Source of the DNA: Paramyrothecium sp. XJ0827 | Lineage: Eukaryota; Ascomycota; Sordariomycetes; Hypocreales; Stachybotryaceae | Assembly (NCBI GenBank): GCA_020881915.1 | Contig: JAJFPB010000007.1 | Location: 2,356,001-2,420,000, forward strand | Direction of reading: 5' to 3' | DNA: 64,000 nucleotides | Part shown: piece by piece, positions 21,545-60,939 of the stretch | Position numbering within the stretch: the stretch's first letter is position 1 | Layout of the letters: each line of letters opens with the position of its first letter | Position numbers and translations under genes: made by a program | The notes under the pieces: generated by a model | What the model was told of the DNA's origin: nothing | Database searches by the model: none | The model's input: only the letters and a program-made list of their open reading frames with translations

Positions 21545-22791
21545 TTACAGCTCGTCGTGGAAGTCACCGCCGTCCTCCTCGCCGGCACCGCCAGCACCCT
21601 GGTACATCTTGGAGGTGATGGGGTAGGCGACGTTGGACAGCTTCTCCTTCTGCTCCTCGAAGTCCTCGGCAGTGGCGTCAGCGCCGTTCTCCTCGAGCCA
21701 CTCGGTGGTCTCCTTAACAGCGTCGAGAATCTAGCGAAAGTGTTAGTCATGTGTTCAGTGAAACAAAACATCAGTGTCAACTTACGGTCTCCTTCTCCTC
21801 CTCGTCAATCTTGCCACCCAGACCCTCCTCGTCGTTGACCTGGTTCTTCAGGCTGAAAGCGTAGTTCTCAAGACCGTGACGGGCCTCAACGCGCTCACGG
21901 GTAGCCTTGTCCTCCTCGGCGTACTTCTCAGCCTCGGCGACCATGCGCTCAATCTCCTCCTGGCTCAGGCGGCCCTTGTCGTTGGTGATGGTAACGGACT
22001 CAGACTTGCCAGTGCCCTTGTCGTGGGCAGAGACCTTCAGGATACCGTTGGCGTCGAGCTCGAAAGAAACCTCAATCTGAGGGACACCACGGGGGGCAGG
22101 GGGGATGCCGGTAAGCTCGAACTTGCCGAGAAGGTTGTTGTCCTTGGTCATGGAACGCTCTCCCTCGAAGACCTGGATCAGGACGACGGGCTGGTTGTCG
22201 GCGGCGGTGGAGAAGATCTGGCTCTTGCGAGTGGGGATGGCAGTGTTGCGGGGAATGAGCTTGGTCATGACACCACCAGTGGTCTCAATACCGAGGGTAA
22301 GAGGGTTGACATCCATCAGAACGACATTGGTGGTACCCTCCTGACCAGACAGAATACCAGCCTGGACGGCAGCACCGAAAGCAACAGCCTCGTCAGGGTT
22401 GATACCCTTGGAAGGCTCCTTGTTGAAGTACTCCTTGATCAACTCCTGAACCTTGGGGATACGAGTGGAACCACCGACAAGGACGATGTCGTCGACCTCG
22501 TCCTTCTTGACCTTGGCATCCTTAAGGACCTGCTCAACAGGCTTGATGGTCTTCTTGAAGAGGTCAATGTTGAGCTCCTCGAACTTGGCGCGGGTCAGGG
22601 TCTCGGAGAAGTCGTTGCCCTCGAAGAAAGCCTCGATCTCAATGCGAGTGCTCATCTGGGAGGAGAGAGTTCGCTTGGCCTTCTCAGCCTCACGCTTGAG
22701 CTTGCCCATAGCCTTGAGGTCCTTGGTGACGTCAACGTTGTTCTTCTTGTTGTAGGCCTTGGCGAAGTAGTTGATGACACGCTGGTCGAAA

Positions 22792-22823
<32 letters not shown>

Positions 22824-23762
22824 AGCCAGGACCTCGAAGATGCCGTCCTCAATGGAGAGCAGGGAGACATCGAAAGTACCACCACCGAGATCGTAGACGA
22901 TAATCTGACGCTCACCGTCGGTCTTGTCCAGACCGTAGGCGATGGCAGCGGCGGTGGGCTCGTTGACAATTCGGAGGACGTTAAGACCGGCGATGATACC
23001 GGCATCCTTGGTAGCCTGACGCTGGTTGTCCTGCAAAGAAGGTCAGACCCGAGGGCGATTACTTAGGGTAATTTTGGCGAACTTACGTTGAAGTAGGCGG
23101 GAACAGTGACGACGGCGTGGGTAACCTTCTTACCAAGGTAAGACTCGGCAACATCCTTCATCTTTCCGAGAACCATGGCGGAGATCTCCTCAGGAGTGAA
23201 GACCTTCTTCTCGCCCTGAACCTCGACCTGAACGTTGGGCTTGCCATCCTTGGCAATAACCTTGTAGGGGAAGTGCTTGATGTCGGACTGGATATCCTTC
23301 TCGGACATCTTACGGCCAATCAGACGCCTGAGGGTTTGTTAGCACGTGTCGCATCTATTGAGGGCAGAAGCAGAGGTTTCTTACTTGATATCGTAGATAG
23401 TGTTGGTGGGGTTCGCGGCGGCCTGGTTCTTGGCGGAGTCACCAACGAGGCGCTCCTCATCGGTGAAAGCGACGTAGGAAGGAGTGATTCGGTTACCCTG
23501 GTCGTTGACGAGAATCTCGACCTTGCCATTTTGCATCACACCGACGCAAGAGTAAGTGGTTCCCAGATCCTGCAGAGAAGCAATTAGCAACCGTGGCTCA
23601 AAGGCACGGAACGCTCGAAGCACTTACAATACCGATGACAATGCCGTAGTTCTCGTCGGACTCGTTGGCGTTGACGGACTGGATGAAGGCGGGGGAGAAG
23701 AGGAGGCCGATCCAACACAGGAGTCCGAGGCCAAGGGCCAGCGAGCTCCTTGAACGAGCCAT
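21545..23762 (-). CDS. kar2/bipA: ER-lumenal Hsp70 chaperone BiP/Kar2
   Basis: There are five exons on the minus strand: 23762-23628, 23569-23385, 23327-23087, 23030-21786 and 21730-21545, giving 663 residues. The introns are 55-58 bases, GT-AG and in phase. A signal peptide (hydrophobic core about residues 8-25) precedes the nucleotide-binding domain, which shows [29 protein letters not shown] and [10 protein letters not shown]. The substrate-binding domain follows ([19 protein letters not shown], then the helical lid). The protein ends in HDEL, the ER-retrieval signal, so it acts in the ER lumen in folding, translocation and the unfolded-protein response. A likely 5'-UTR intron spans about 23793-23864 (GTAAGC to TTACACAG). 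Length and sequence are fully typical. Confidence 0.97.
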
Positions 23763-44006: not shown

Positions 44007-47000
44007 TTAGCAGCTGGGGTCTACCATCTCCGCATACTTCGTGAACTCCTCGTCCGTCAGGAACATCTCCAGCTCCTCCGGGTGGGTGCCCAGGGCAAGC
44101 TCCACGCCTCCGTCTCTCCTCATGGGGAAGATGACCAGGAATCGGAAGCGGCCATTGCCGCGCTCCAGCTGGGGCCGCATCGTCTCGGGCGAGCCCTCGT
44201 TGGCGAAGAACTTGTCTCCGAAACAGACCTCGCGGGTCGGGAACATCATGGTGTTCGAGATCATGGCGTGCATGTGCTCCAGGCCCATGTTGGCCGTTGA
44301 GAACCTGCTGTGATCCGGGAGGGACTGCAGGATTGTGAATGCGTCGTGCACCAGCGAAGGCGTGATGCGCGCAGCAGACTGGCGGAGGAGGTAAGCAACT
44401 TGCCCAATGCTTGTCTCGTCGGAGCAGAGGGTTTCCACGGGCATGCTGGACCGATTCAAGATGAGCATACTACCCATGTATGTTTCAGGCAGCAGAGAGG
44501 AAAAATATGGTCGACCGTCGGTCGGTAGCTCGAGGATGGACATGTCGTCAGGCCCAAAGGTCTGCTTGCGAATCTCCTTGGCCACTCGATACCGCGCTCT
44601 GATGGCGGCGCGCCAGAGGAAGGCTTGCACAATGTCGCTGATGGATGTGATGACGCCCTTAGCCGCGGGGTCGGCAATGACATCCTGCTTCATCTGCTCG
44701 AGTCTGTCGGGCGTGATCAGGAAGAGCGTGGTGGTCATGCATCTTTCAGCCCGAGGCAGTGGCCACACAGAATGCAAGGGGAAGACAGGGCGTGGAGGAA
44801 GAGAAACCTCTCTTGGGCTTCTCTTGGAAACGACCGACGTCTCAGTCGCTGGTGTTTTCTGGTCGTCGCGGCCCCCGTCGGACTGTTCCTCCTCTGGCGG
44901 GAAGAACGGCAGAAAGCCCCAGGTACCGGGGTCGATCTCGTCAACCGGTCGGGACCATCCCTCCTGCTCGTGAATAATCTCTGGCAAGCTGTGGTTGAAG
45001 CTCTCTGGGTCATACCAAGAGCACGTCGCCGTCTTGTCGCCTTGCAGGTATCTACAATTCTCAGCCCACGCCTTTAGAGCAATCATAACCCCAAGCCCGT
45101 CCAGGCAGCAATGGTTCAAGTCGACTGCGATGATGCAGCCACCTCGGACAAAGTTGACTTGCCCCACAAAGATGTCGGCGGGCATCTTGGGGAAAGTATC
45201 ATCCCGGAGAACAAGACTGTCTTTGAAACAAGATGGCGCGAAGCCAGCCTCTCTCATCTTGTTGAACGAGGGAAGAACATCAGAGAGATCCTTGTAAACC
45301 AAACGATCGCGTGCTGAAGCCGCTTTGGAGAGGGGAGGAATCGTGACGCAGAGATCTCCTTTGCTATACCCTATCTCTTGCTCAGAGCAATTCATCATCT
45401 TGCCGCTGAGGGCTGGGATCATGTCGAATGTCCGGTTGAGGCCCTCCTGCAAGTTGGCGAAAACCTTCTCGTAAACAACACCATCGTGGAGGGGGAAGTA
45501 GAACATCAAGCCCATGCCGTGATTCGGGTTGACGTAATCAAAAGCATTCAGCCGGAACGACTGCCGAGCTTTGTGCTGGGCAATCATGGCTTTCATGTTC
45601 GCTACAGTGTCGTCAACCGGCTTGGCGACTTCGACCGCCTCGTCTACACTTCTGGCCTCGGCTGCCAGGCGAAAGACGATGTCGGAAAGCTTGTCAACGG
45701 ATGGGCTTGCATACACGTGGCGAGGAGCAATCTGCTCGTCAAGTCCCGTGGCCGCCCGGAGCGACTTGACTAAGGCGAAAACACCAAGTGAGTCCAAGCC
45801 CAGCTCGAATAGGTTCGCATCGACAGGAGCCTCTTGAACGTCTTGGAGTGTAGACGCAAGAATCTCGCCAATGCATGCTTGTACCGAATCTAGTGACTCC
45901 AAGTCGACAGTGAAAGTCCCCGTTGCGTTCTCGTCGCGCGAGTTGTAGAAACGTTCAATGTAGTCAGCATAGAGTGTCAGGGTAGCAGGTCGCTTCACAG
46001 TGCCCTTGTCAGTGCGGAAGAAGGGCTTCTCGGGCTCCGCAAATGTGACAAAGTCCCTCAGCAGCTGATTCTTGTGTCGAGATATTGAGTTTGCTTTCTT
46101 GACCGTGTCCCAGATGCTATCGAGTAGCTCATCTGTCTTATTCAAGGGATCTTTCAACTCAACGAGAAGCCCTGCCTGTGGCCTCCCCGTGCCAAACACA
46201 AGGCACCCGTCGATTGCGGGGTGTGTAGATATGAAGGCCTCCAGCTCTAGAGGTGATATTTTGTATCCGTTTGACAGCACGACGAGATCATCGCTCCGGC
46301 CCTTGAATGCCCATAGATTTGGCTTAGTATGGTGCCTCATGTACAAGTCCTTGAAGTTGATCGACTGCTTCTCGGGAAAGGTATGGAAGATGCCTTGGAA
46401 GAGATCGGAGTGCTCATTGCGATGCACCCAATGCTCAAAAGTATCCTCGTCAACCTGCTTGAACTCGAAGCCGGAGTACGGATGGAAGCAGAACCAGAAC
46501 CAGTCTTCTCGCGGGGTCACCAGGTTGCCAATGAACAAACCCTCCGTCGTGCCTGTCAGGTTCAGCACTCTGATGACCTCGTTCACCTTGCCAGCCCTGA
46601 TGGGGCTCACAGGGCCGCCGGACGCGCAGATGAATTTGGACGGCTTAAGCTTTGCCAAGACGTCAGGGGTTTCCCCCAGCTCGTCGACAAGGGAGGGAAC
46701 CATGCTCCAGATATCAATCTTGGCACGCTCTGCAAGGTTCTCCACAAGATTGACGTTGGGAAGCACTCCCACGGGGCCTAGGACACAGTGCAGGTTGAAA
46801 AGGGCAGGCATTAGGATATCCATAATGATGCCAGCACCCTGATATCGTTGTGGTCAGCAAATCACATCCTTTGTGCTTCCGCAGGCTCAGCAAGGGTCGA
46901 AGGGACTCACATGGCTCATAGGAAAGGCCGAATAGATCCTGTCCCCAGCGATCCAGTCAGCTGTCCAAGGGAGAAGACCGTCATCGCCATCTACAGGCGG

Positions 47001-49233
47001 CAGCAGTCGCACTGCATCCATGGTGCCAATCAGGCCGTGGGACCAAGGAATAGGTTTGGGCACTCCCGTCGTCCCAGAAGTGTGCAGTATGCAGAAAGGG
47101 TCGTTGGAGGCTTCGCTGAACGTCTTCAAATAGGGGAACGGTTCCGTAGATGCGGCATCGAGAAGCTCTTCTAGTAGTGGGAGCTGTAGAAGAGTCATGG
47201 GACGTTGCTTCGTCATTTCCTTGACCAGAGGAACAGGAGATGCGTCGCTTGCATTGACCCAAATGTTACATTTGGTAGCTTCAAGGACCGCCAATGCACC
47301 TTCTGTGTTATTCTTCGGCGAGAGAAAGAGGGCCTGTTGCGTTCAAGCTCTATTAGTATTAAATTTCATTTCCTGAGGAACAGAGGATGGCTTACCGCGT
47401 ATCCAGCCTTAACACATGCATAGGTCAGGAGGACGTGTCGTAAATCATCTATAGTTACCAAGGTATCATTGATTAGTTCAGCAACATGAGTTGGAAAACA
47501 TAGTTCTCTTGACTTACGAGGTCCGATATAACCAACCGGCTCAATTGATTCAGGCTTGCCGACCTGATTGTATAGCCACCAGGCAGTCTTGTCAACGGCC
47601 TTGCCAAAATCGCGCGCGGAAACGTCCTTGAGGTCCAAGGCGTTGCCGCATTGCGTCGCCAGCGAGAAGACGGTGCGCTCTGGCTCAGAAGCTGCCAGTT
47701 CATCCATAATATGAGGAATTAGTCTTTTGCCGTATGGTATTGAGCTCGTTGCGTTGGTCTCCGGCAGCTGTACAAGATCTCCAACGACCACCTGTGGGAC
47801 AACCGCTACATTTTTGGGTGAGGCCTGTCTCTCGGGTGTAGTCACAGCGCTCCCACCGGCAGTCAAGGCTGACGAGAAAACAGAAAAGTCGCTGGGCGAA
47901 GCCAAAGAAGGTGAGGCTAGAGGAGTCGAAACGGTCTTGGGCGTGGATGCTCCACTGAGGTATGCACTGGCGTTGAGCGGCCTCGCCGTCTGGAGATACA
48001 CCGCCGTCGTCTCGTTGATGCCGTGGACGTTGCCCTCTGTTGGCCTCTCCCTAAAATAGCTAGGCCGGCCATCCTCGTGCACGAGCTCCAACCTATCGTC
48101 TTGGCTGAATTCGCCCATGGGAGCGCTGATCCACTCGCCGTCGGCGAGCTGAGCGACGCTGCAGTGCCATGGGGTAGTGAAGCCGGTCTTGGTGTTGAGC
48201 AGACATACGGAGACCTTGTTCACGCCTATCGATTCGTGAATCGAAAGCCGCAGATGGTTGGGGAAGGCGTTCTGAACCGCCCGTGCGAAGGCCTATCGGA
48301 AATCGGATAGTCAGCAACAGCACCCATGTCAACTTGATAGTCTGTGTGACGTACATATCCACGTATCAGCATTTGCTTGGCGAGGTACTTGCAATCCCGC
48401 TTATATTCATTCGCAGTCCTATCTTCTCCTCTCGGGAAGATGTACTTCAAGTCCGACTCCAAGAATCTCTTGTAGCCAAGGTAGGTCAGCTTGGTGTCGG
48501 GATTTTTGGCAATTTCGACGTCAATGTCGAGGTCGACACTGCCATAGGTATTTAGCAACAGTCGACGGAACGTGGTGCAATTGGCAACGTAGGCGATTTC
48601 GGTCATCTTCTCTGGCAGAGGAAAGTTGAGGAGGTCTCGCATGCGAGAGAACCCGATGTAATCGAACTTCTTGTGAATGGCCATTTTGCGGAGAGCCTCC
48701 CCGTAAGCCCATGTCTCCTGATCTGAAATGCATAATAGATCTGGTTGTCACGAAAAGAGGCAATTGCATTAGTTATTGTGTAAAACTGTGATGACTGGTC
48801 TGGATGCATCCGATGTTGCTAACGTACCGTTATATGTGAGACCGTCGGAGATGATAACGACTTGAGCCCCAGGCGGATATATCTCGCGAATCCTCGCGCA
48901 CATGGTATTCAATCGTTCAAGCGCCAACTCTTCAGCCTTATCAGGGAGAACTCCCAGCACCTTGTACACTTTGTTGGCAGATTTGAAGGGGAATGCGGGA
49001 AGACATGCCTCTACCCGCTTCTCGTCTGCAACGAAGCGGCCAATGACTGACAGGAACTTGTCTGCACCTCCCTCCAAGCGATCCCTCGAGTCGTCGAATT
49101 TATTTAGCGCGAACTCGAAGATGATATCCAGGATGAGACGAGAGGTCTGGTTGACCCTGTCGTCGGATTGCGAGGCATCGCCAGTTGCGGCGGCGCCACC
49201 GGCAAGACTGCAATCGTGCTGCTGCACATTCAT
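44007..49233 (-). CDS. Isocyanide synthase / NRPS-like hybrid megasynthase (ICS-A-T-acyltransferase)
   Basis: There are six exons on the minus strand: 49233-48828, 48740-48355, 48292-47518, 47448-47396, 47333-46911 and 46838-44007, giving 1,624 residues with every junction in phase. Residues to about 330 are a DIT1/PvcA-type isocyanide synthase; splicing restores VIISDGLTYN joined to DLLCISDQETWAYGEAL. The adenylation domain follows, with HTSGTTGVPKPIPWSHG (about 624-640) and GRSDDLVVLSNGYK (about 861). The thiolation site is FELGLDSLG with Ser1031. The C-terminal acyltransferase has HCCLDG (His1257, Asp1261). PvcA-type enzymes turn an amino group into an isonitrile using ribulose-5-phosphate. 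The adenylation and thiolation domains would then load the acid, and the transferase would pass it to an alcohol or amine. The domain order equals that of A. fumigatus CrmA. No reductase or thioesterase domain is present. The amino acid used cannot be read with confidence. Confidence 0.95.
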
Positions 49234-50864
49234 GGTGGATAGGGTGAGGAAACTCTATTAGGAAGCGAGGATGAGTGATGATCCACCGCGATGAAGTAGG
49301 TTTATGTGGTGATTCAAGGTCTCAAGGTTCGGCCGAGGGGCGAATGATAGGCGGCCTAGTGCAGCAAAGTGACACAAAAGGAATGGCGAGGCCCGCCTGA
49401 CCAGGACAACTCGTGGTACGGCTGAGCAACAGAATGGAGCGTGGTTGATCCTCACGCCATCCCCATGGGCAAGTGAGGGGAGACCGTTTGGCTTTTCTAC
49501 TCGAGGCTCGTCAAGTTACATCTGCCCACCATAACGATTACACGAAGGCTCACCGAGGTGCGGCCATGCCGCCTCGGGCTGCTCGAGAAAGGATTTCCAT
49601 TATTCAGCCCTTGTGCCACGCTCTAACGGTTGTAGAGATAGTGATTATCATGGTAAGAAGGAGGCTGCTCGGGCTCCGCTGCACTAACGACCCAAGTGTC
49701 GAAACCCGCTCAGGTGGCCGGCCAGGATTGGAGCACGTTTGAGCTCTATGCCGACGCAGCCAAGAACAGGGGCCGAGATACCTCAGACCAGGTGTAAGAT
49801 GGTGAGGCTTCGGTGGAAGGTAAGACGGGCCGGTCACGCGATATGACTGCATCATCGAGGTAACTACAGACGCGAGCACAAAGGCAAAGCAACTCTAGGG
49901 CTGTAGCCTCGAACGCTGCTTCGAGGGGCCGAGACGAGTCGGGCCCAGGATGATGCCATGCAGAGATGAGGACCCGGAAATAGACTGGGTAGCATCTCCT
50001 GTGTACAAAGCTGAAAACCGGTGGGCAATGGCTCAGCATGCAGCATGCAGGACCATGCAACAAACTATGACCATGCCATGTCTTGCTTGCATTGGAGCAC
50101 TGCCGAATGGTGGTCCAACCAGGCGGCGGCAGGCAGGTAGGTAGGCAAGCAAGCAAGCAAGCAAGCATGCAAGCATGCATTCGAGGCACCTTTGTGCAAG
50201 GCGTGCAGTTCGTATCGATCCTGCGAGCTCGACGCACCGAGCTATCGATTCCTGCAACTACGATGGCGGGCGTTCGCGGCATGCCAGTCCGGGATGGTTC
50301 GGTTTCCGGACCATTCCCCATCAACCCTGAGCCGAAGCGTTGGGATCAGAGTTACATCCAACAGAAAGAGAAGGGGAAAAAAAGGGACGTCGCATTAAGG
50401 CTCGTGCATTTCCGCATCGGCCTCTGCGGCTGCGTCTCATTCTTTCCTGCAGCCGGCTTCCGACGAGGTAAGCCCGATTGCACCGGCATGTCGTCTGCTT
50501 ACCGCATTTCAGCACGCCGAGCCATGCGGGCTCGTTGACGTTTTGGGCGCAGTCCGACATCCCGGACAACAACCACACCCTCAGCCCGGTCTCCGTCATG
50601 CATCATGTACGCACTCGCGGAAGCCCGATTTCTTCCTAGTCGACGCCCAGACCCTTGCTTCCAAGACAAAGCCCCCCACCACCACCGGAACGATCACGAT
50701 TGCTAGTATAGTATATACGATGCCCGTTGTATCGGACTACCCTTTGGCTGCTTTAAGCCGTCATCAGAACGCCCCGAGCTCATCTCGCTTCGTACTTCAC
50801 AGCGTTCGCTCCCACCTGCACTCCGAACGGACCGAGCGCCCCTTCACGCAATCTGGAACTCACC
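49234..50864. promoter_or_regulatory. Divergent promoter of the cluster core and the acyltransferase
   Basis: A 1.6-kb region lies between the two divergent starts. A TATA-like TAGTATAGTATATACG sequence sits at 50705-50720, about 145 bases before the acyltransferase start. A GCAA/CATGC repeat is at 50144-50180. I looked for the yeast Mac1-type copper motif (TTTGCTC or its complement) and did not see it. No gene is supportable here. Confidence 0.5.
50144..50180. repeat. GCAA microsatellite with GCATGC palindromes
   Basis: About six GCAA units run into GCATGCAAGCATGCAT. It lies in the divergent promoter of the cluster. Confidence 0.85.
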
Positions 50865-52348
50865 ATGGTCAACATCCATCAGCTCAAATCTCTCCGGCCT
50901 CTAGGTATTTCGAACCCGAGGACCTGGGTATGTGACGTGTCATTGACTTACACACTCTCCTAGGCAAACTCGAGCAGGTCTCAGCCTCCTGCCACCACCT
51001 GGGTTTCTTCAACAATGTCGGCGTCTCAGCTCGGTACAAGTTGGCGTCATCCTCGATTCCAGCTGCATTGGACCTGCGTCGTGTGGTGTTCGCCGCAACG
51101 GGCGACGTGGTTCGCAAGCACCGCATACTGTCCGCCATTCCTATCAATGAGGACACGCCCGACACCTACTTCGCCTCTCTCCCTTCCATTGACCTCAGTC
51201 GGAGCATTACCTTCCTGAAGCGTTCCAAACCAGTGACCGATCCAGGCGAGGGAGAAGACAAGGAGCTTGATGCCATCCTTGAGGAGCAGCACAACACCAA
51301 CTTCAAATCTGCTTACGGCACCTTGCCGTTCTGGCGCTTGGTCATTACTGAAAGCACTCAAGCCGAGAATGAGTTCACAGCGTCCTTCATATTCCACCAT
51401 GCCATAGGCGACGGCATGTCTGGCTTGGTTTTTCACAAAGCATTTTACAGTGCTCTGGAAGCTGCATCACGCTCCTCTTCACTTGCTGCGGAGGGTGACA
51501 ATGTCATTGTGCCGGACGAGAGCGCCTCCATACTCCCGCCTCTGGAGGAGCTGCATCCTCTGCCTCTCAACCCAACGCCTCCAGCACCCCCCGCGGCGGT
51601 TCTGGAGGAGTGGACAGGAAACTCGATTCACATGCCCTGCAAGTCTCGCTGGAAATCTCTGCGTCTTTCACCGAGTGTGTCAAAGTCCTTTTTCCAAGAA
51701 TGCAAATGTCAGAATCTGTCAGTCACCTCGGGGCTGTCGTCGCTCATTGCCACTCTGCTGTTCGGCATTCTTCCTCCCACTGCAGAGGCACTCACCGGTA
51801 TCATCCCAGTCAGCTTACGACCTTGGCTCGGAGTAGAGCGCGAGGTCGCTGATGCAGCAATCGGAACATATTTTGACGCCACGAGGGTACAGTTTACCAG
51901 ACCTGACTTGGGTTCTGCTGATCCCAGCTCGGAAGACGTATGGTCTGGGGCTCAGCGAGTCTCAAAAGCAATTGACGAGTACCTCCGCAATGTCTCGGAC
52001 TCGGGTGAGCCTTACACAGCTGTTGCCATCTTCAAGACCATCCCAGATGTATCCGTCATTTTCAACTCACTGGTCGGCAATCCTCGAGATGCCGCGTTCG
52101 AGGTGACGAATATCGGAGTGTTCTCACCTACGAGCCTTTCCGGCGAAGAGACTCCAGCCTGGCGCGTGGGAAGCGTCTTACTCAGTCGGAGCTCCGTTGC
52201 TTCTGGGGCTGCAGTCACTGTCAGCCTCGCTACTGGCGGAGACGGGTCGATGACCGTAGGTTTCAGCTGGCAAGAGGGCGTCATTGGGGACGACGTCGTA
52301 GACAAGGTTGGCCAAGGCATAAGGAGATACTTTGCCAAGTACCTGTAG
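50865..52348 (+). CDS. Alcohol-acetyltransferase-like (AATase, PF07247-type) enzyme
   Basis: There are two exons, 50865-50904 and 50964-52348, giving 474 residues. The 40-base first exon starts at a CACCATGG context and encodes MVNIHQLKSLRPL. The 59-base intron (GTATTT to CTCCTAG, branch TTGACTTA) joins it in phase to GKLEQVSASCHHLGFFNNVG, which is the typical N-terminus of this family. The catalytic HxxxD is HAIGD (His159, Asp163). A second family-like element is GIIPVSLRPWLGV. Such enzymes acetylate or acylate alcohol groups from acyl-CoA in the cytosol. Position next to the isocyanide core suggests O-acylation of the pathway product, which is inference. Confidence 0.87.
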
Positions 52349-52937: not shown

Positions 52938-54002
52938 ATGGAAAAACAACAAGCAACATACCCTTACCCCTACTCCAAGGCGGCGCAGCTGGATCCAAGG
53001 ATCAAGCTCCCGCGCCCCGTCATTGACCCTACGCTCGCGCCTATCATTGATTCTTTCCTGCTTCCTGAGGAGGTTGATCTGGAGTACATGCGCGGTCTGG
53101 CCACCGGAACAGACGAGGCAGCATTCGTCTACAATGCCGACACTATCCTCCTGAGCGCACCCCATCTCCAGCACGAGGAGCATACCGTCCCCGGGCCAGA
53201 TGGTAATAGCGTCACACTGTCTATCTTTACACCAAAGGAACCCGCCTCTCCTGCGTTGCCAGCCCTCTATCATGTGCACGGTGGCGGTATGGTCTCCGGG
53301 GACCGCTTCACTGCCGTGACTGAGCTTCTGACCCTCCTCCACGACATTGAGTGCGTGGTTGTGTCCGTCGAGTACCGCCTGGCCCCAGAGACTCGCGCCC
53401 CGGGACCAGCAGAGGACTGCTACGCCGGGCTAGTCTGGACATTTGAAAACGCCGCCAGGCTGGGCATCGATCCTGCTAGTATCGTGGTATGGGGCGTGTC
53501 TGGCGGTGCAGCCCTGGCAGCAGCAACATGCTTGATGGCGCGAGACACAAAAGTTCCTTCCGTCCCTATCAAGGGCCAGATATTGGTGTCCCCCATGTTA
53601 GACGATCGCTGTGAAAGCATCTCCGATCAGCAATTCGAGTACGGCAGCCCGTGGTGTGGAGTTGCCAACCGCATGGCTTGGACTCACGTCCTCGGAGAGG
53701 ACCGAGGCACCAACAACGTCTCTTCGTACCAATCGCCGTCTCGAGCAGAGGATCTCTCGGCCCTTCCGACCACCTACATCGACGCCGCTGAGTGCGAGGT
53801 GTTCCGCGACGCCGCCGTGTCGTATGCCACGAAGATGTGGCGCTGTGGATCTACATGCGAATTACACATCTGGCCGGGAGCATTTCATCTGTTCGATGCC
53901 ATGGACAATCCCGAGTTACCACTTGTCCATGCTGCGGTTCGGGCCAAGCAGATTTGGCTGAAGAGAATCATGCAGCACCCAAGTCCGGGAGGTAGTATTT
54001 GA
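52938..54002 (+). CDS. Alpha/beta hydrolase, HSL-type esterase
   Basis: This is a single exon of 354 residues. The oxyanion-hole motif is HGGG (114-117). VVSVEYRLAPE follows, as in hormone-sensitive-lipase-type esterases. The nucleophile elbow is GVSGG (Ser188), instead of the usual GDSAG. The catalytic His is in GAFHLFD (His317). The acid residue position reads AECEVFRD, so Glu287 may replace the usual Asp. There is no signal peptide, so it is probably cytosolic. Location between the acyltransferase and the transporter suggests cleavage or transfer of an ester in the cluster product, or self-protection, which is inference. An upstream in-frame ATG at 52887 is possible but adds residues without character. 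Confidence 0.87.
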   Translation: MEKQQATYPYPYSKAAQLDPRIKLPRPVIDPTLAPIIDSFLLPEEVDLEYMRGLATGTDEAAFVYNADTILLSAPHLQHEEHTVPGPDGNSVTLSIFTPKEPASPALPALYHVHGGGMVSGDRFTAVTELLTLLHDIECVVVSVEYRLAPETRAPGPAEDCYAGLVWTFENAARLGIDPASIVVWGVSGGAALAAATCLMARDTKVPSVPIKGQILVSPMLDDRCESISDQQFEYGSPWCGVANRMAWTHVLGEDRGTNNVSSYQSPSRAEDLSALPTTYIDAAECEVFRDAAVSYATKMWRCGSTCELHIWPGAFHLFDAMDNPELPLVHAAVRAKQIWLKRIMQHPSPGGSI

Positions 54003-54901: not shown

Positions 54902-56662
54902 ATGGCTGAAGCTCGCGACCCAGCAGTGCCGCCCCGAAATAACGGCGAAGCGGAAAAGGATCGAAACGCAGTGCTATACAACGAGGACCACGAGTCGAAC
55001 TCGGCGCATGATGGAGATGACTCCATCGACAAGGACGCCCAGGCCGGTGTTCAGCAAATCCAGGCTATTGCCACGGTATGGTCGAAGAGCAGCCTGATTG
55101 CTGCCTACGTGACGATATGGATCGTTTACTTCGTCATGCTGATGGAGCAGAGCGCAAAGGCGGCACTGACCCCCTGGGTCACATCAGCCTTCCAGCTGCA
55201 CTCTCTCACACCGACCGTCGGCATCCTGTCCGCCGTGATCGGAGGAGTGTGCAACCTGACCGTGGCCAAGATACTCGACGTCTTCGGACGTCCTCAAGGC
55301 TACGCCATGGCCCTGGTCATCGCCACCGTCGGGCTCATCATGATGGCGGCTACCAAGAACGTGGAAATGTACGCCGCCGCGGACGTCTTCTGGACCGTCG
55401 GGAACACCGCGGTGCTCTACACGGTCAACATCGTCGTCGCGGATACAACGAGCCTGCGCAATCGTGGCCTCATGGTGGCGCTGACTTCGTCGCCCAACAT
55501 CATCACCACGTGGCTGGGTGGCCCCATCTCGGAAGCGTTCCTCAACGGGCCCGGGTGGCAGTGGTGCTTTGGGATGCTGGCCATCATCGTGCCGGTTGTG
55601 TGTCTTCCTCTCTATGGCATTCTGATGTTCAACTACTTCAAGGCCAAAAAGCAAGGCCTCATCGTGGCCGCGCAGAAGACAAGGACACCTTGGCTGTCAC
55701 TTATACACTATGGCCGCGAGTTTGATGCCGTCGGCCTTCTTCTACTTAGCGCCGGGCTGGCCCTCTTCCTATTGCCATTCAATCTTTACGCTCTGCAGAC
55801 CCAGGGCTGGAAGTCACCAATGATCATCTGCCTGCTGGTTTTTGGCATTGTCATCATGGTTCTGTTCGTCCTGTGGGAGCGATTCCTGGCGCCCGTCACC
55901 TTCATCCCCTACTCATTGCTCTTGGACCGCAACATGATCGGCGCGTGCATACTCGGAACCGTTCTCTTCATCAGCTTCTTCTGCTGGAACAGTTTCTTCA
56001 GCTCTTTCCTGATGGTTGTCAATGACCTCAGCGTCACCGAGGCGAGCTACGTGGTCCAAGCTTATAATCTGGGCGGCAGTCTGTTTGCGATTGCTGCCGG
56101 CGTGGCCATCCGATATACGGGTCGTTTCAAAGCAATCACGCTTTACGGAGCTTTGCCTGTCTACACTCTGTTCATGGGTCTCATGATTCACTTCCGACAG
56201 CCGGATATGAACATTGGCTACATCATCATGTGTCAGATCTTCATGGCATTCGCCTCAGGCGTCATCATTATCACACCTCAGATTGCTGCTATGTCTACGG
56301 CGTCCCATCAACACGTTGCGGTGGTCATGGCTGTTCTATCCATGTTTTCGTCTATTGGAGGTGCCATTGGTCTCACAGTCGCCGGCACCATATGGCAAAA
56401 CGTGTTCCCGGTCAAGCTCGCTGAATATCTGCCAATTGAGGAAATGGCAAACTTCCCGCTCATCTACGGCATGCTCGACGTGCAAGTCAGCTATCCCATT
56501 GGATCACCAACACGAATCGCCATTCAGCGCGCCTATGGAGATGCACAATCAATGATGTTGGCCGCTGGCACGGCTATCTGGGTAGTTGGGTTCGTCGCTG
56601 TTGCTTTCTGGCGAGACACCAATGTCAAGAACCTGAAGCAGGTCAAGGGTCGGGTTATTTGA
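54902..56662 (+). CDS. MFS transporter of the siderophore-iron transporter (SIT/Mir) type
   Basis: This is a single exon of 586 residues from the ATG at 54902. An acidic hydrophilic N-terminus (about 55 residues) precedes roughly 14 hydrophobic segments. SIT-like blocks include WIVYFVMLMEQSAKAALTPW, SAVIGGVCNLTVAKILDVFGR, LRNRGLMVALTSSPNIITTW, RFLAPVTFIPYSLLLDRN and a late YPIGSPTRIAIQRAYG segment. Relatives (yeast Arn/Sit, Aspergillus MirB) move ferric siderophores across the plasma membrane. Isocyanides are strong metal ligands, so a SIT-type carrier in this cluster may move a metal-isocyanide complex or a related chelator; this is inference. There is no intron, which is somewhat unusual for the family but the frame is intact. 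Confidence 0.9.
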   Translation: MAEARDPAVPPRNNGEAEKDRNAVLYNEDHESNSAHDGDDSIDKDAQAGVQQIQAIATVWSKSSLIAAYVTIWIVYFVMLMEQSAKAALTPWVTSAFQLHSLTPTVGILSAVIGGVCNLTVAKILDVFGRPQGYAMALVIATVGLIMMAATKNVEMYAAADVFWTVGNTAVLYTVNIVVADTTSLRNRGLMVALTSSPNIITTWLGGPISEAFLNGPGWQWCFGMLAIIVPVVCLPLYGILMFNYFKAKKQGLIVAAQKTRTPWLSLIHYGREFDAVGLLLLSAGLALFLLPFNLYALQTQGWKSPMIICLLVFGIVIMVLFVLWERFLAPVTFIPYSLLLDRNMIGACILGTVLFISFFCWNSFFSSFLMVVNDLSVTEASYVVQAYNLGGSLFAIAAGVAIRYTGRFKAITLYGALPVYTLFMGLMIHFRQPDMNIGYIIMCQIFMAFASGVIIITPQIAAMSTASHQHVAVVMAVLSMFSSIGGAIGLTVAGTIWQNVFPVKLAEYLPIEEMANFPLIYGMLDVQVSYPIGSPTRIAIQRAYGDAQSMMLAAGTAIWVVGFVAVAFWRDTNVKNLKQVKGRVI

Positions 56663-59086: not shown

Positions 59087-60939
59087 CTACTGCCCTTCTT
59101 CGGATGACTTTTCACATGCCTGGCCGCCAGGTTCATGCCAGTCAACAACCTGGACGCCGTCTTCGTTGTCTTTGGGGAGTCGAGGGCAACTAGTACAAAG
59201 AGCGAGAATGGCGGCTACCGTGGCAAGCGCGGCACCCGTGAACCAGACCGTCCGGAGAGCCTGGGTGACCGCTTCCAAAAGCGGCTCCCCGTTGCCCTTC
59301 GAATGTGCCAATGAGCTTCGCATGCTCTTGATTAGGTTTTGCGTGGTGTTTTTGCTGAGCCCTTGCGTTTCCAAGAGCTTGCTCAAGCGGCTAGAGAAGA
59401 CGCTTTGGCCGATGGCAACCCCAAGGGTCTGCCCTCCTGCTCGTAACATGTACATCATCGCCACGGCGTGACCAGCGTCAGCACCAGCCACGGTCGCCTG
59501 GACCCCGATGGACATAGCTGGTACTAGTGTACCAAGGGACACTCCAAGGAAGAGACTGATCACGATCAGTTCCCAGCCAGCCGTCTCCTCTCTGATCCGT
59601 GTCATGACAAAGTAGATCGGAATCGCTAAACCCCATCCTACCAGCAAGAAGCTCCGGTAGTGGCCCGTTCTTCTGGCAACCTGACCCACGACCACGGCCA
59701 TGGGCGCCACCGTCAAGGTGGCCGGAAGGGCCCACACGCCAGTCAGCAATGGAGACAACCCTTTGACGCCGAGATAGAACAGCGACATGTAATAAAGTGT
59801 CATCCACATCAGTATCCCATGCAGGGTTATGTTGATGAATTGGAAGACTGTGGAGTATCGTCGGAACAGGCTGGGTCGAAACATAGGATTTTTGGCCGCC
59901 AATGTCTCGTAGCAGCCGAGAGATACAAACCCAGCGATGCCGAGACTGAGAGGGATGATGACCTGCAATGAACTCCATGGAAACTGTGAACCAACCCAGC
60001 TCAAAGGTATAGAAAGCGCCGCTGCTGAGACTACGAAGAGGCCGGTGCCTATCCAGTCAACTTTGGCTAATTGTCGCCAGCCCAAGGGTTTCAACGGCGT
60101 GTCGTAGCCGAGCCAAAGCCAGGCGCCGACAATACTAACAGCGAGAGTCGGCAGATTTACCCAGAAGAGCCATCTCTGTATTGATCAGCAAACGTGGTTT
60201 TCATCTTTGTGAATAGTGCCGGTCTTGCTCACCCAGCCAATAGCTTCGGTCTGCGTGAAGAAACCCCCAAGCAACGGGCCCGATACTGTACCTACGGCCC
60301 ATGATATGTTCAGGAACGAGACCCACCGAGCCCGCTCCCTAATGGGAAACAGGTCGGTCAAAACTACAGCAGCCAAAGGTTGCGGGCCACCAGCTCCGAT
60401 GCCCTGGACGATGCGTCCCGCAAGAAGCACGTCTGTTTTTTGCGCGCAGCCGCATATGATTGTTCCGGCGATGAAGATGGCCAGGGCAAAGAGGTAAGCC
60501 GGCTTCCGGCCGACGACGTGCGAGAGTTCCGTGAAGATGGGTTGTGCGATCGTGGTGGCGAGGAGGAAAGCCGTGCCCAGGCTCAGACTCTCTGAGACTG
60601 TGGCGTTCAAGTCTGTTGCAATGATCTACAAAAGTTAGATGAAGCTGGCCAAGGGGTTGTCCTAGATAAGGCGAAAGAATTTGTGTTTGGACATCACACG
60701 CTCACCGGAAGAGTTACGCAGATACATGTTGCGTCAAAGGCTTGAGTGAGTACAACTAGACTCAGGAGGACAAATATGAGGACACTGCGCGGCTTGCCCT
60801 TGCCATCTTGTCCCTGTTCAGACAGCGATATCACCTTGGACTCTGGAGATATCCCAACTTTCTGCCCCCCGCAGACGGCTTCGAGTGAGTGAGGACGCAT
60901 CTGCTTGGAAGGTTCGAGGGGAAAGGCATGCGTTCGCAT
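59087..60939 (-). CDS. MFS multidrug exporter of the 14-TM (DHA2) type
   Basis: There are three exons on the minus strand: 60939-60706, 60625-60233 and 60175-59087, giving 571 residues. Both introns (80 and 57 bases) are phase 0 and join LP to IIATDLN and IGW to RWLFWVNLP. Characteristic motifs are GRKPAYLFALAIFIAGT (motif A region), GRIVQGIGAGGPQPLAAVVL and WAVGTVSGPLLGGFFT (motif C-like). A C-terminal loop and helix follow the last membrane segments. Such proteins export drugs or fungal toxins with proton antiport at the plasma membrane. As a cluster member it would give product export and self-resistance (inference). The start at 60939 is the first ATG in frame; a second lies at 60897. Confidence 0.88.

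What the first reader, a model, noticed from the sequence alone, without database searches (positions are those of the whole stretch)
44007..49233. Complete isocyanide synthase / NRPS-like hybrid hidden in six exons
The sequence shows a DIT1/PvcA-type domain, an adenylation domain, a thiolation site (DSL, Ser1031) and an HxxxD transferase fused in one 1,624-residue protein. No single continuous frame covers all of it; the splice junctions make it coherent, including the 53-base fourth exon. The only close architecture I know is A. fumigatus CrmA, a copper-responsive enzyme making a valine-derived isocyanide. A second fungal lineage with different neighbours could make a new isocyanide product.
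Basis: partly seen in the sequence, partly recalled or inferred. Interest (0 to 1): 0.92.

Follow-up and report, generated by a model that had tools for sequence, protein, structure and literature searches.

The report
CrmA isocyanide synthase gene cluster
The window holds an intact copy of a well-known fungal gene, crmA, whose relatives make a small copper-linked isocyanide, together with its usual neighbour genes; it is an ordinary member of a widespread family, though the same genome also keeps a related version split into two genes.

Summary
Six exons (49233-44007, minus strand) give one 1,624-residue protein: isocyanide synthase (ICS), adenylation, thiolation (Ser1031) and HxxxD transferase.

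The novelty claim fails. The protein is 90% identical to a Paramyrothecium foliicola protein already named crmA and 74% to an A. fumigatus protein that I take to be CrmA; 99 of 120 listed hits carry PF05141 plus the A-domain tail. ICS-NRPS-like enzymes were 32.8% of fungal ICS proteins in Nickles et al. 2023. The neighbours are the usual crm set: crmB-like acetyltransferase, alpha/beta-hydrolase, and an MFS transporter that groups with the transporter part fused to CrmA in other fungi. Pocket motifs match relatives from producing species, so valine isocyanide, probably as acylated polyol esters, is predicted rather than a new product.

Two side results are more interesting: the genome also has a divided relative (separate ICS and A-T-transferase genes), and 19 of 20 further listed hits join an ICS to ABC-transporter domains, beyond the three architectures in the papers I read.

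The parts
44007..49233 (-). crmA orthologue, 6 exons, 1,624 aa: ICS - adenylation - thiolation - transferase
   Evidence: spliced translation, Pfam, homologues, trees
48828..49233 (-). exon 1 (406 bp); ICS domain match starts at residue 65
48355..48740 (-). exon 2 (386 bp), intron 1 ends AACCAG at 48741; middle of the ICS domain
47518..48292 (-). exon 3 (775 bp); end of ICS with RLSIH and TPWH stretches, linker, start of A domain
47396..47448 (-). exon 4 (53 bp), within the A domain
46911..47333 (-). exon 5 (423 bp); A3 motif HTSGTTGVPKP at residues 624-634
44007..46838 (-). exon 6 (2,832 bp); rest of A domain, T domain (S1031), Tri101-like transferase (H1257xxxD1261)
49234..50864 (.). 1.6-kb region between the divergent crmA and crmB-like genes; copper-motif counts in the window are at chance
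50865..52348 (+). crmB-like alcohol acetyltransferase, exons 50865-50904 and 50964-52348, 474 aa, PF07247
   Evidence: 82% identical to P. foliicola 'crmB', 61% to an A. fumigatus protein
52938..54002 (+). alpha/beta-hydrolase (PF07859), 354 aa, single exon
54902..56662 (+). MFS transporter, 586 aa; groups with the transporter part fused to the C terminus of CrmA in other fungi

Best explanation
This is the crmA orthologue of a fungus close to Paramyrothecium, in a standard crm cluster (crmA, crmB-like acetyltransferase, alpha/beta-hydrolase, MFS transporter). Proposed working: the ICS domain turns L-valine into (S)-2-isocyanoisovalerate; the A domain activates its carboxylate and loads it on the phosphopantetheine arm at Ser1031; the HxxxD transferase passes the acyl group to a polyol such as mannitol. 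The acetyltransferase and possibly the hydrolase add or trim further acyl groups, and the MFS protein exports the product. Domain content, intactness, orthology and gene neighbourhood are shown here. Valine as substrate, polyol as acceptor and copper control are inferred from relatives. The division of labour among the A, T and transferase domains is inference alone.
For: Domains and motifs intact. 90% identity to P. foliicola 'crmA', 74% over 98% to A. fumigatus P0017. ICS tree: inside an 18-row CrmA set at 100/98; A-T-transferase tree: inside a 17-row set at SH-aLRT 99; both sets hold P0017 and the P. expansum protein P0036. A4 (FPMSHGAGIIM) and A5 (LTGTTEGLFxGNL) stretches match P0017 and P0036; in those two species crmA-dependent N-formylvaline and mannitol esters were found (PMC9381783). 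By organism and longest-contig length, a crmB-type protein goes with crmA in 20, and the hydrolase in 15, of 23 entries, which were picked because at least one matched; running locus tags in several. The window MFS groups with the four CrmA-fused transporter tails at 99/100 against six own paralogues.
Against: No expression or metabolite data. Copper-response motifs (recalled) are at chance in the window: TTTGCTCA 3 seen, 2.9 expected; TGTGCTCA 0 seen, 2.9 expected; TTGCTCA 14 seen, 11.8 expected. No Ctr copper transporter (crmD type) match in the window; the only Ctr place on the same contig is about 0.47 Mb away. Deletion of crmB-D did not change crmA metabolites in A. fumigatus, so the neighbours' roles are uncertain. 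Raw identity of the MFS is slightly higher to one own paralogue (61%) than to the fused tails (48-59%); only the tree separates them. Won et al. call the polyol acyltransferase as yet unknown, so giving that step to CrmA's own transferase domain is my guess.
Confidence: 0.88

Rival explanations
1. The enzyme is CrmA-like but acts on another amino acid or acceptor and makes a new isocyanide product.
For: 74% identity to the A. fumigatus protein leaves room; the T domain is less conserved (63%). Products differ between lineages in acyl decoration (PMC9381783).
Against: The A-domain stretches compared match those of proteins from A. fumigatus and P. expansum and the protein sits in the same clade. 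Not every pocket residue was mapped.
Confidence: 0.1
2. The ICS and NRPS-like parts are separate genes and the 1,624-aa chain is an artefact of over-joining exons.
For: A divided arrangement exists at another locus of this genome and in Fusarium GCF 8 (PMC10153163).
Against: Exon 3 runs without a break from the ICS into the A domain, and the first 99 listed homologues carry both parts in one predicted chain.
Confidence: 0.02
3. A non-functional relic of a crm cluster.
For: No expression data.
Against: The frame is open over 4,875 nt, catalytic motifs and neighbours are intact; 96% identity to an unnamed relative, with the ICS domain 100% identical.
Confidence: 0.02

Closest known systems
Aspergillus fumigatus CrmA / crm cluster (PMC5974471, PMC9381783)
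   Same: Same ICS-A-T-transferase chain, 74% identity over 98% to P0017, which I take to be CrmA; crmB-type neighbour; same A-domain stretches
   Different: No Ctr copper transporter beside it; has an alpha/beta-hydrolase, which the paper says the A. fumigatus cluster lacks; copper response untested
crm clusters of Dothideomycetes (C. heterostrophus, A. brassicicola, L. maculans; PMC9381783)
   Same: crmA + alpha/beta-hydrolase + crmB set; the window MFS is sister of the transporter part fused to CrmA in Bipolaris and Lojkania
   Different: Transporter is a separate gene here, not a C-terminal part of CrmA; order is crmA, crmB, hydrolase here, whereas the paper places the hydrolase between crmA and crmB
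Paramyrothecium foliicola crmA/crmB (database names only)
   Same: 90% (crmA), 82% (crmB) and 87% (hydrolase) identity, each with the same longest-contig length
   Different: Gene order there not seen; no difference of substance seen in the proteins
GCF 8 of Nickles et al. 2023 (single-domain ICS beside an NRPS-like gene, called Fusarium-specific)
   Same: The second locus of this genome, C10:4728477-4734840, has that divided arrangement
   Different: Not a Fusarium by its nearest named relatives; no terpene synthase among the ten ORFs scanned nearby, which is a partial look
Bacterial PvcA / isonitrile synthases (3e59, 9dh4, 9dhm)
   Same: ICS family by sequence; shared KSxN, SDG, RLSIH and PWH stretches
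   Different: The matched PDB chains are of 315-330 residues, too short to hold A, T or transferase parts

Membership tests
CrmA (fungal ICS-NRPS-like hybrid) | N-terminal DIT1/PvcA (PF05141) domain | tested here: met
   65-333, E 9.4e-97
CrmA (fungal ICS-NRPS-like hybrid) | Adenylation domain with A3 core | tested here: met
   PF00501 and PF23562; HTSGTTGVPKP
CrmA (fungal ICS-NRPS-like hybrid) | Thiolation site | tested here: met
   PP-binding 1006-1067; S1031 the same in all 89 of 90 rows that have a letter there
CrmA (fungal ICS-NRPS-like hybrid) | Transferase domain with HxxxD | tested here: met
   TRI-like_N and Transferase; H in 90 of 90, D in 89 of 90 rows
CrmA (fungal ICS-NRPS-like hybrid) | Orthology with A. 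fumigatus CrmA (taken as P0017) | tested here: met
   Starred sets holding the window and P0017 in the ICS tree (100/98) and the A-T-transferase tree (99)
crm gene cluster | crmB-type alcohol acetyltransferase next to crmA | tested here: met
   50865-52348, 82% to 'crmB' of P. foliicola
crm gene cluster | crmD copper transporter next to crmA (A. fumigatus; the paper finds crmB, C and D little conserved in distant species) | tested here: not met
   No Ctr match in the window; six matches at four places in the genome. Not treated as defining, following PMC9381783
crm gene cluster | crmC-type MFS transporter | tested here: inconclusive
   MFS at 54902-56662 groups with CrmA-fused tails; no A. fumigatus crmC sequence was compared
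crm gene cluster | Induction by copper starvation | not testable with these tools
   Motif counts at chance; three Copper-fist places in the genome prove nothing
crm gene cluster | Valine-derived isocyanide product | not testable with these tools
   Inferred from clade and A-domain stretches

The most novel reading that the evidence does not exclude
In the crm pathway the isocyanide synthase, its NRPS-like partner and the exporter have been joined and separated repeatedly: ICS + A-T-transferase in at least two separate lineages, a CrmA-MFS chain in some fungi, and an ICS-ABC-transporter chain in others. This genome keeps a fused and a divided version side by side. The recurring fusions would point to direct hand-over of the unstable isocyanide from synthase to carrier to exporter.
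Probability: 0.4. Interest if true: 0.45.

Novelty: new member of a known kind. Interest (0 to 1): 0.2.

Why it matters
As found, it adds one more crm cluster, in a Paramyrothecium-like fungus, with a predicted product that can be checked by LC-MS. The wider value is evolutionary: fused and divided forms of the same assembly line in one genome, and repeated coupling to transporters, make substrate hand-over in isocyanide biosynthesis testable.

Tried and rejected
Copper-response motif scan (TTTGCTCA, TGTGCTCA, TTGCTCA, recalled): counts at chance, no evidence either way. First models of the acetyltransferase and MFS genes were off by a base and full of stops; corrected. Capacity for fumivaline-type products could not be judged: DMATS-type prenyltransferase and Methyltransf_33 places exist in the genome, but I did not test for an ergot cluster. 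No structure prediction was run, as sequence relations sufficed. Paper searches for an ICS fused to an ABC transporter (20 of 2,010 listed; 15 of 31 listed) and for isocyanides in Paramyrothecium or Stachybotryaceae (15 of 630 listed) showed no such title or abstract start; I saw listings only, of an open-licence library, so this does not prove absence from print. A Stachelhaus code was not derived; only stretches of the A domain were compared. Identity alone misled for the MFS (an own paralogue is slightly closer), so I built a tree.
Full report
What is there. The minus strand from 49233 to 44007 carries one gene of six exons, 1,624 residues, with a single terminal stop. The five introns have GT-AG ends and CTRAY-like motifs (motif recalled). 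Pfam gives DIT1_PvcA, AMP-binding, AMP-binding_C_3, PP-binding, TRI-like_N and Transferase, each over its curated cut-off. PDB relatives by sequence are PvcA and other isonitrile synthases for the N-terminal part, AMP-forming ligases, weakly, for the middle and trichothecene 3-O-acetyltransferase for the C-terminal part.

It is a CrmA. The best named match is 'Isocyanide synthase-NRPS hybrid crmA' of Paramyrothecium foliicola at 90%; an unnamed sequence reaches 96%; an A. fumigatus protein, P0017, is 74% over 98%. Of 131 proteins found among the 7,991 candidates scored, 120 are listed, and the first 99 of these list PF05141 and the A-domain tail PF23562; some lack one or another of the remaining domains. 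I aligned the 90 of them with at least 1,480 residues and left out 9 shorter ones. In an ICS tree of 60 rows (34 chosen of P0001-P0100, the 20 of P0101-P0120, five own paralogues, the window) the protein pairs with P. foliicola at 100/98 and lies in an 18-row CrmA set at 100/98 that holds A. fumigatus and P. expansum. A quick tree of residues 600-1620 with 34 rows agrees.

Published background. Won et al. 2022 (PMC9381783; abstract, Results and Discussion read) show that CrmA makes a valine-derived isocyanide under copper starvation. They describe CrmA homologues in three ascomycete classes, and report crmA, an alpha/beta-hydrolase and crmB as conserved in three Dothideomycetes, with an extra transporter domain on CrmA in these clades. 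Nickles et al. 2023 (PMC10153163; abstract and outline, two of four parts of Results, and passages from a term search) count ICS-NRPS-like proteins as 32.8% of fungal ICS proteins. Lim et al. 2018 (PMC5974471; abstract and outline, one section and passages from a term search) name three architectures.

The neighbours are the usual ones. Divergent from crmA lie a crmB-like acetyltransferase (50865-52348, two exons), an alpha/beta-hydrolase (52938-54002) and an MFS transporter (54902-56662), with models and Pfam. For the first two, the best named matches are the P. foliicola proteins 'crmB' (82%) and 'lipase' (87%), with the same longest-contig length as its crmA; the MFS was not searched in that database. 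The entries were chosen because something matched, so this shows that the set recurs, not how often; entries without such a match, for instance Arthroderma sp. PD_2, were not counted. Running locus tags back it, for instance G7Z17_g989, g990, g991 and AK830_g6017, g6016, g6015.

The transporter. The window MFS is 52-57% identical to the C-terminal transporter part of CrmA chains from Lojkania, Bipolaris and Verticillium albo-atrum, and 40% to that of a Trichoderma. The second MFS of the window (59090-60625) gave only a 90-residue match at 27%. The genome has many relatives of this MFS, the closest at 57% (61% over the stretch used), so identity alone does not settle it. In a tree with six own paralogues the window MFS groups with all four fused tails at 99/100. 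It therefore looks like the unfused form of the same exporter. A caution: the fused Trichoderma chain P0047 stands beside an unfused one, P0021, on very short branches, so some fused chains may be gene-model joins.

Product. Stretches around A4, A5 and the downstream core match proteins from A. fumigatus and P. expansum closely. Both species make crmA-dependent N-formylvaline and mannitol esters without copper. Valine isocyanide, released as acylated polyol esters, is therefore the expected product. This is inference, not a test.

A divided relative in the same genome. The genome (51.8 Mb, 15 contigs) has at least six ICS places. At C10:4729716-4728477 (minus) a stand-alone ICS is 57-70% identical to the CrmA ICS, and divergent from it at C10:4731098-4734840 (plus) lies an A-T-transferase gene 44-70% identical over four pieces and 37% over the first, with A3, DSL and HxxxD stretches present. 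Both halves, in separate trees, fall beside a small set of fused chains from Rhypophila, Apodospora, a Naviculisporaceae and an unnamed source (ICS 98/91; A-T-transferase SH-aLRT 99). Holding the 35 rows labelled fused together in one ICS clade is disfavoured (p-AU 0.017, with the two C7 rows left out; the 35 include P0100, which lists only ICS and AMP-binding domains). The grouping was chosen after seeing the tree, and the fused chains P0061 and P0099 sit on an unresolved fork there, though the A-T-transferase tree places them with the main CrmA set. Two fusions, or one fusion and a later split, both fit. Nickles et al. call the comparable cluster GCF 8 Fusarium-specific.

ICS chains with ABC transporters. 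P0101-P0120 match the ICS near their N terminus (residues about 37-404), and 19 of these 20 list ABC-transporter Pfam domains (P0118 does not). One clade for these 20 is neither found nor rejected (p-AU 0.331). A Phialophora and a Cladophialophora member have locus tags three and four away from an alpha/beta-hydrolase and an acetyltransferase of the families found here. They may be gene-model joins in part, but the order recurs in over a dozen genera by the names. The sections I read list three architectures, without this one; the listings showed no title on it. No own-genome ICS locus read here (L042-L045) had an ABC match beside it.

Verdict. A correct and careful observation of an ordinary member of a described family; low interest for the finding itself, with a modest evolutionary lead.

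Noticed in passing
G000:C10:4728477-4734840 (L044, L046): Divided CrmA relative: stand-alone ICS gene divergent from an A-T-transferase gene, in the same genome as the fused crmA.
   Followed up: yes
proteins P0101-P0120: ICS domain near the N terminus of chains that, in 19 of 20, also list ABC-transporter domains; not among the three ICS architectures in the papers I read.
   Followed up: partly
G000:C7:622766-625797 (L045): Two ICS genes in tandem with a DJ-1/PfpI protein (isocyanide hydratase type) and an MFS nearby, reminiscent of the icsA/icsB or xan clusters.
   Followed up: no
G000:C10:129621-131525 (L015): A further A domain 38-54% identical in pieces to that of CrmA; the nearest ICS match on that contig is some 0.8 Mb away.
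   Followed up: no
proteins P0175 and P0177: Acetyltransferase and alpha/beta-hydrolase domains in one predicted 795-residue chain, another joining of crm neighbours or a gene-model join.
   Followed up: no
window 21762-23063 (+): Open frame matching PF10712 'NAD-specific glutamate dehydrogenase' lies antisense to an HSP70 gene (21780-23042, minus) and is probably a spurious family match.
   Followed up: no
window 59090-60625 (-): Second MFS transporter near the cluster, not closely related to the crm-type MFS; whether it belongs to the cluster is unknown.
   Followed up: partly
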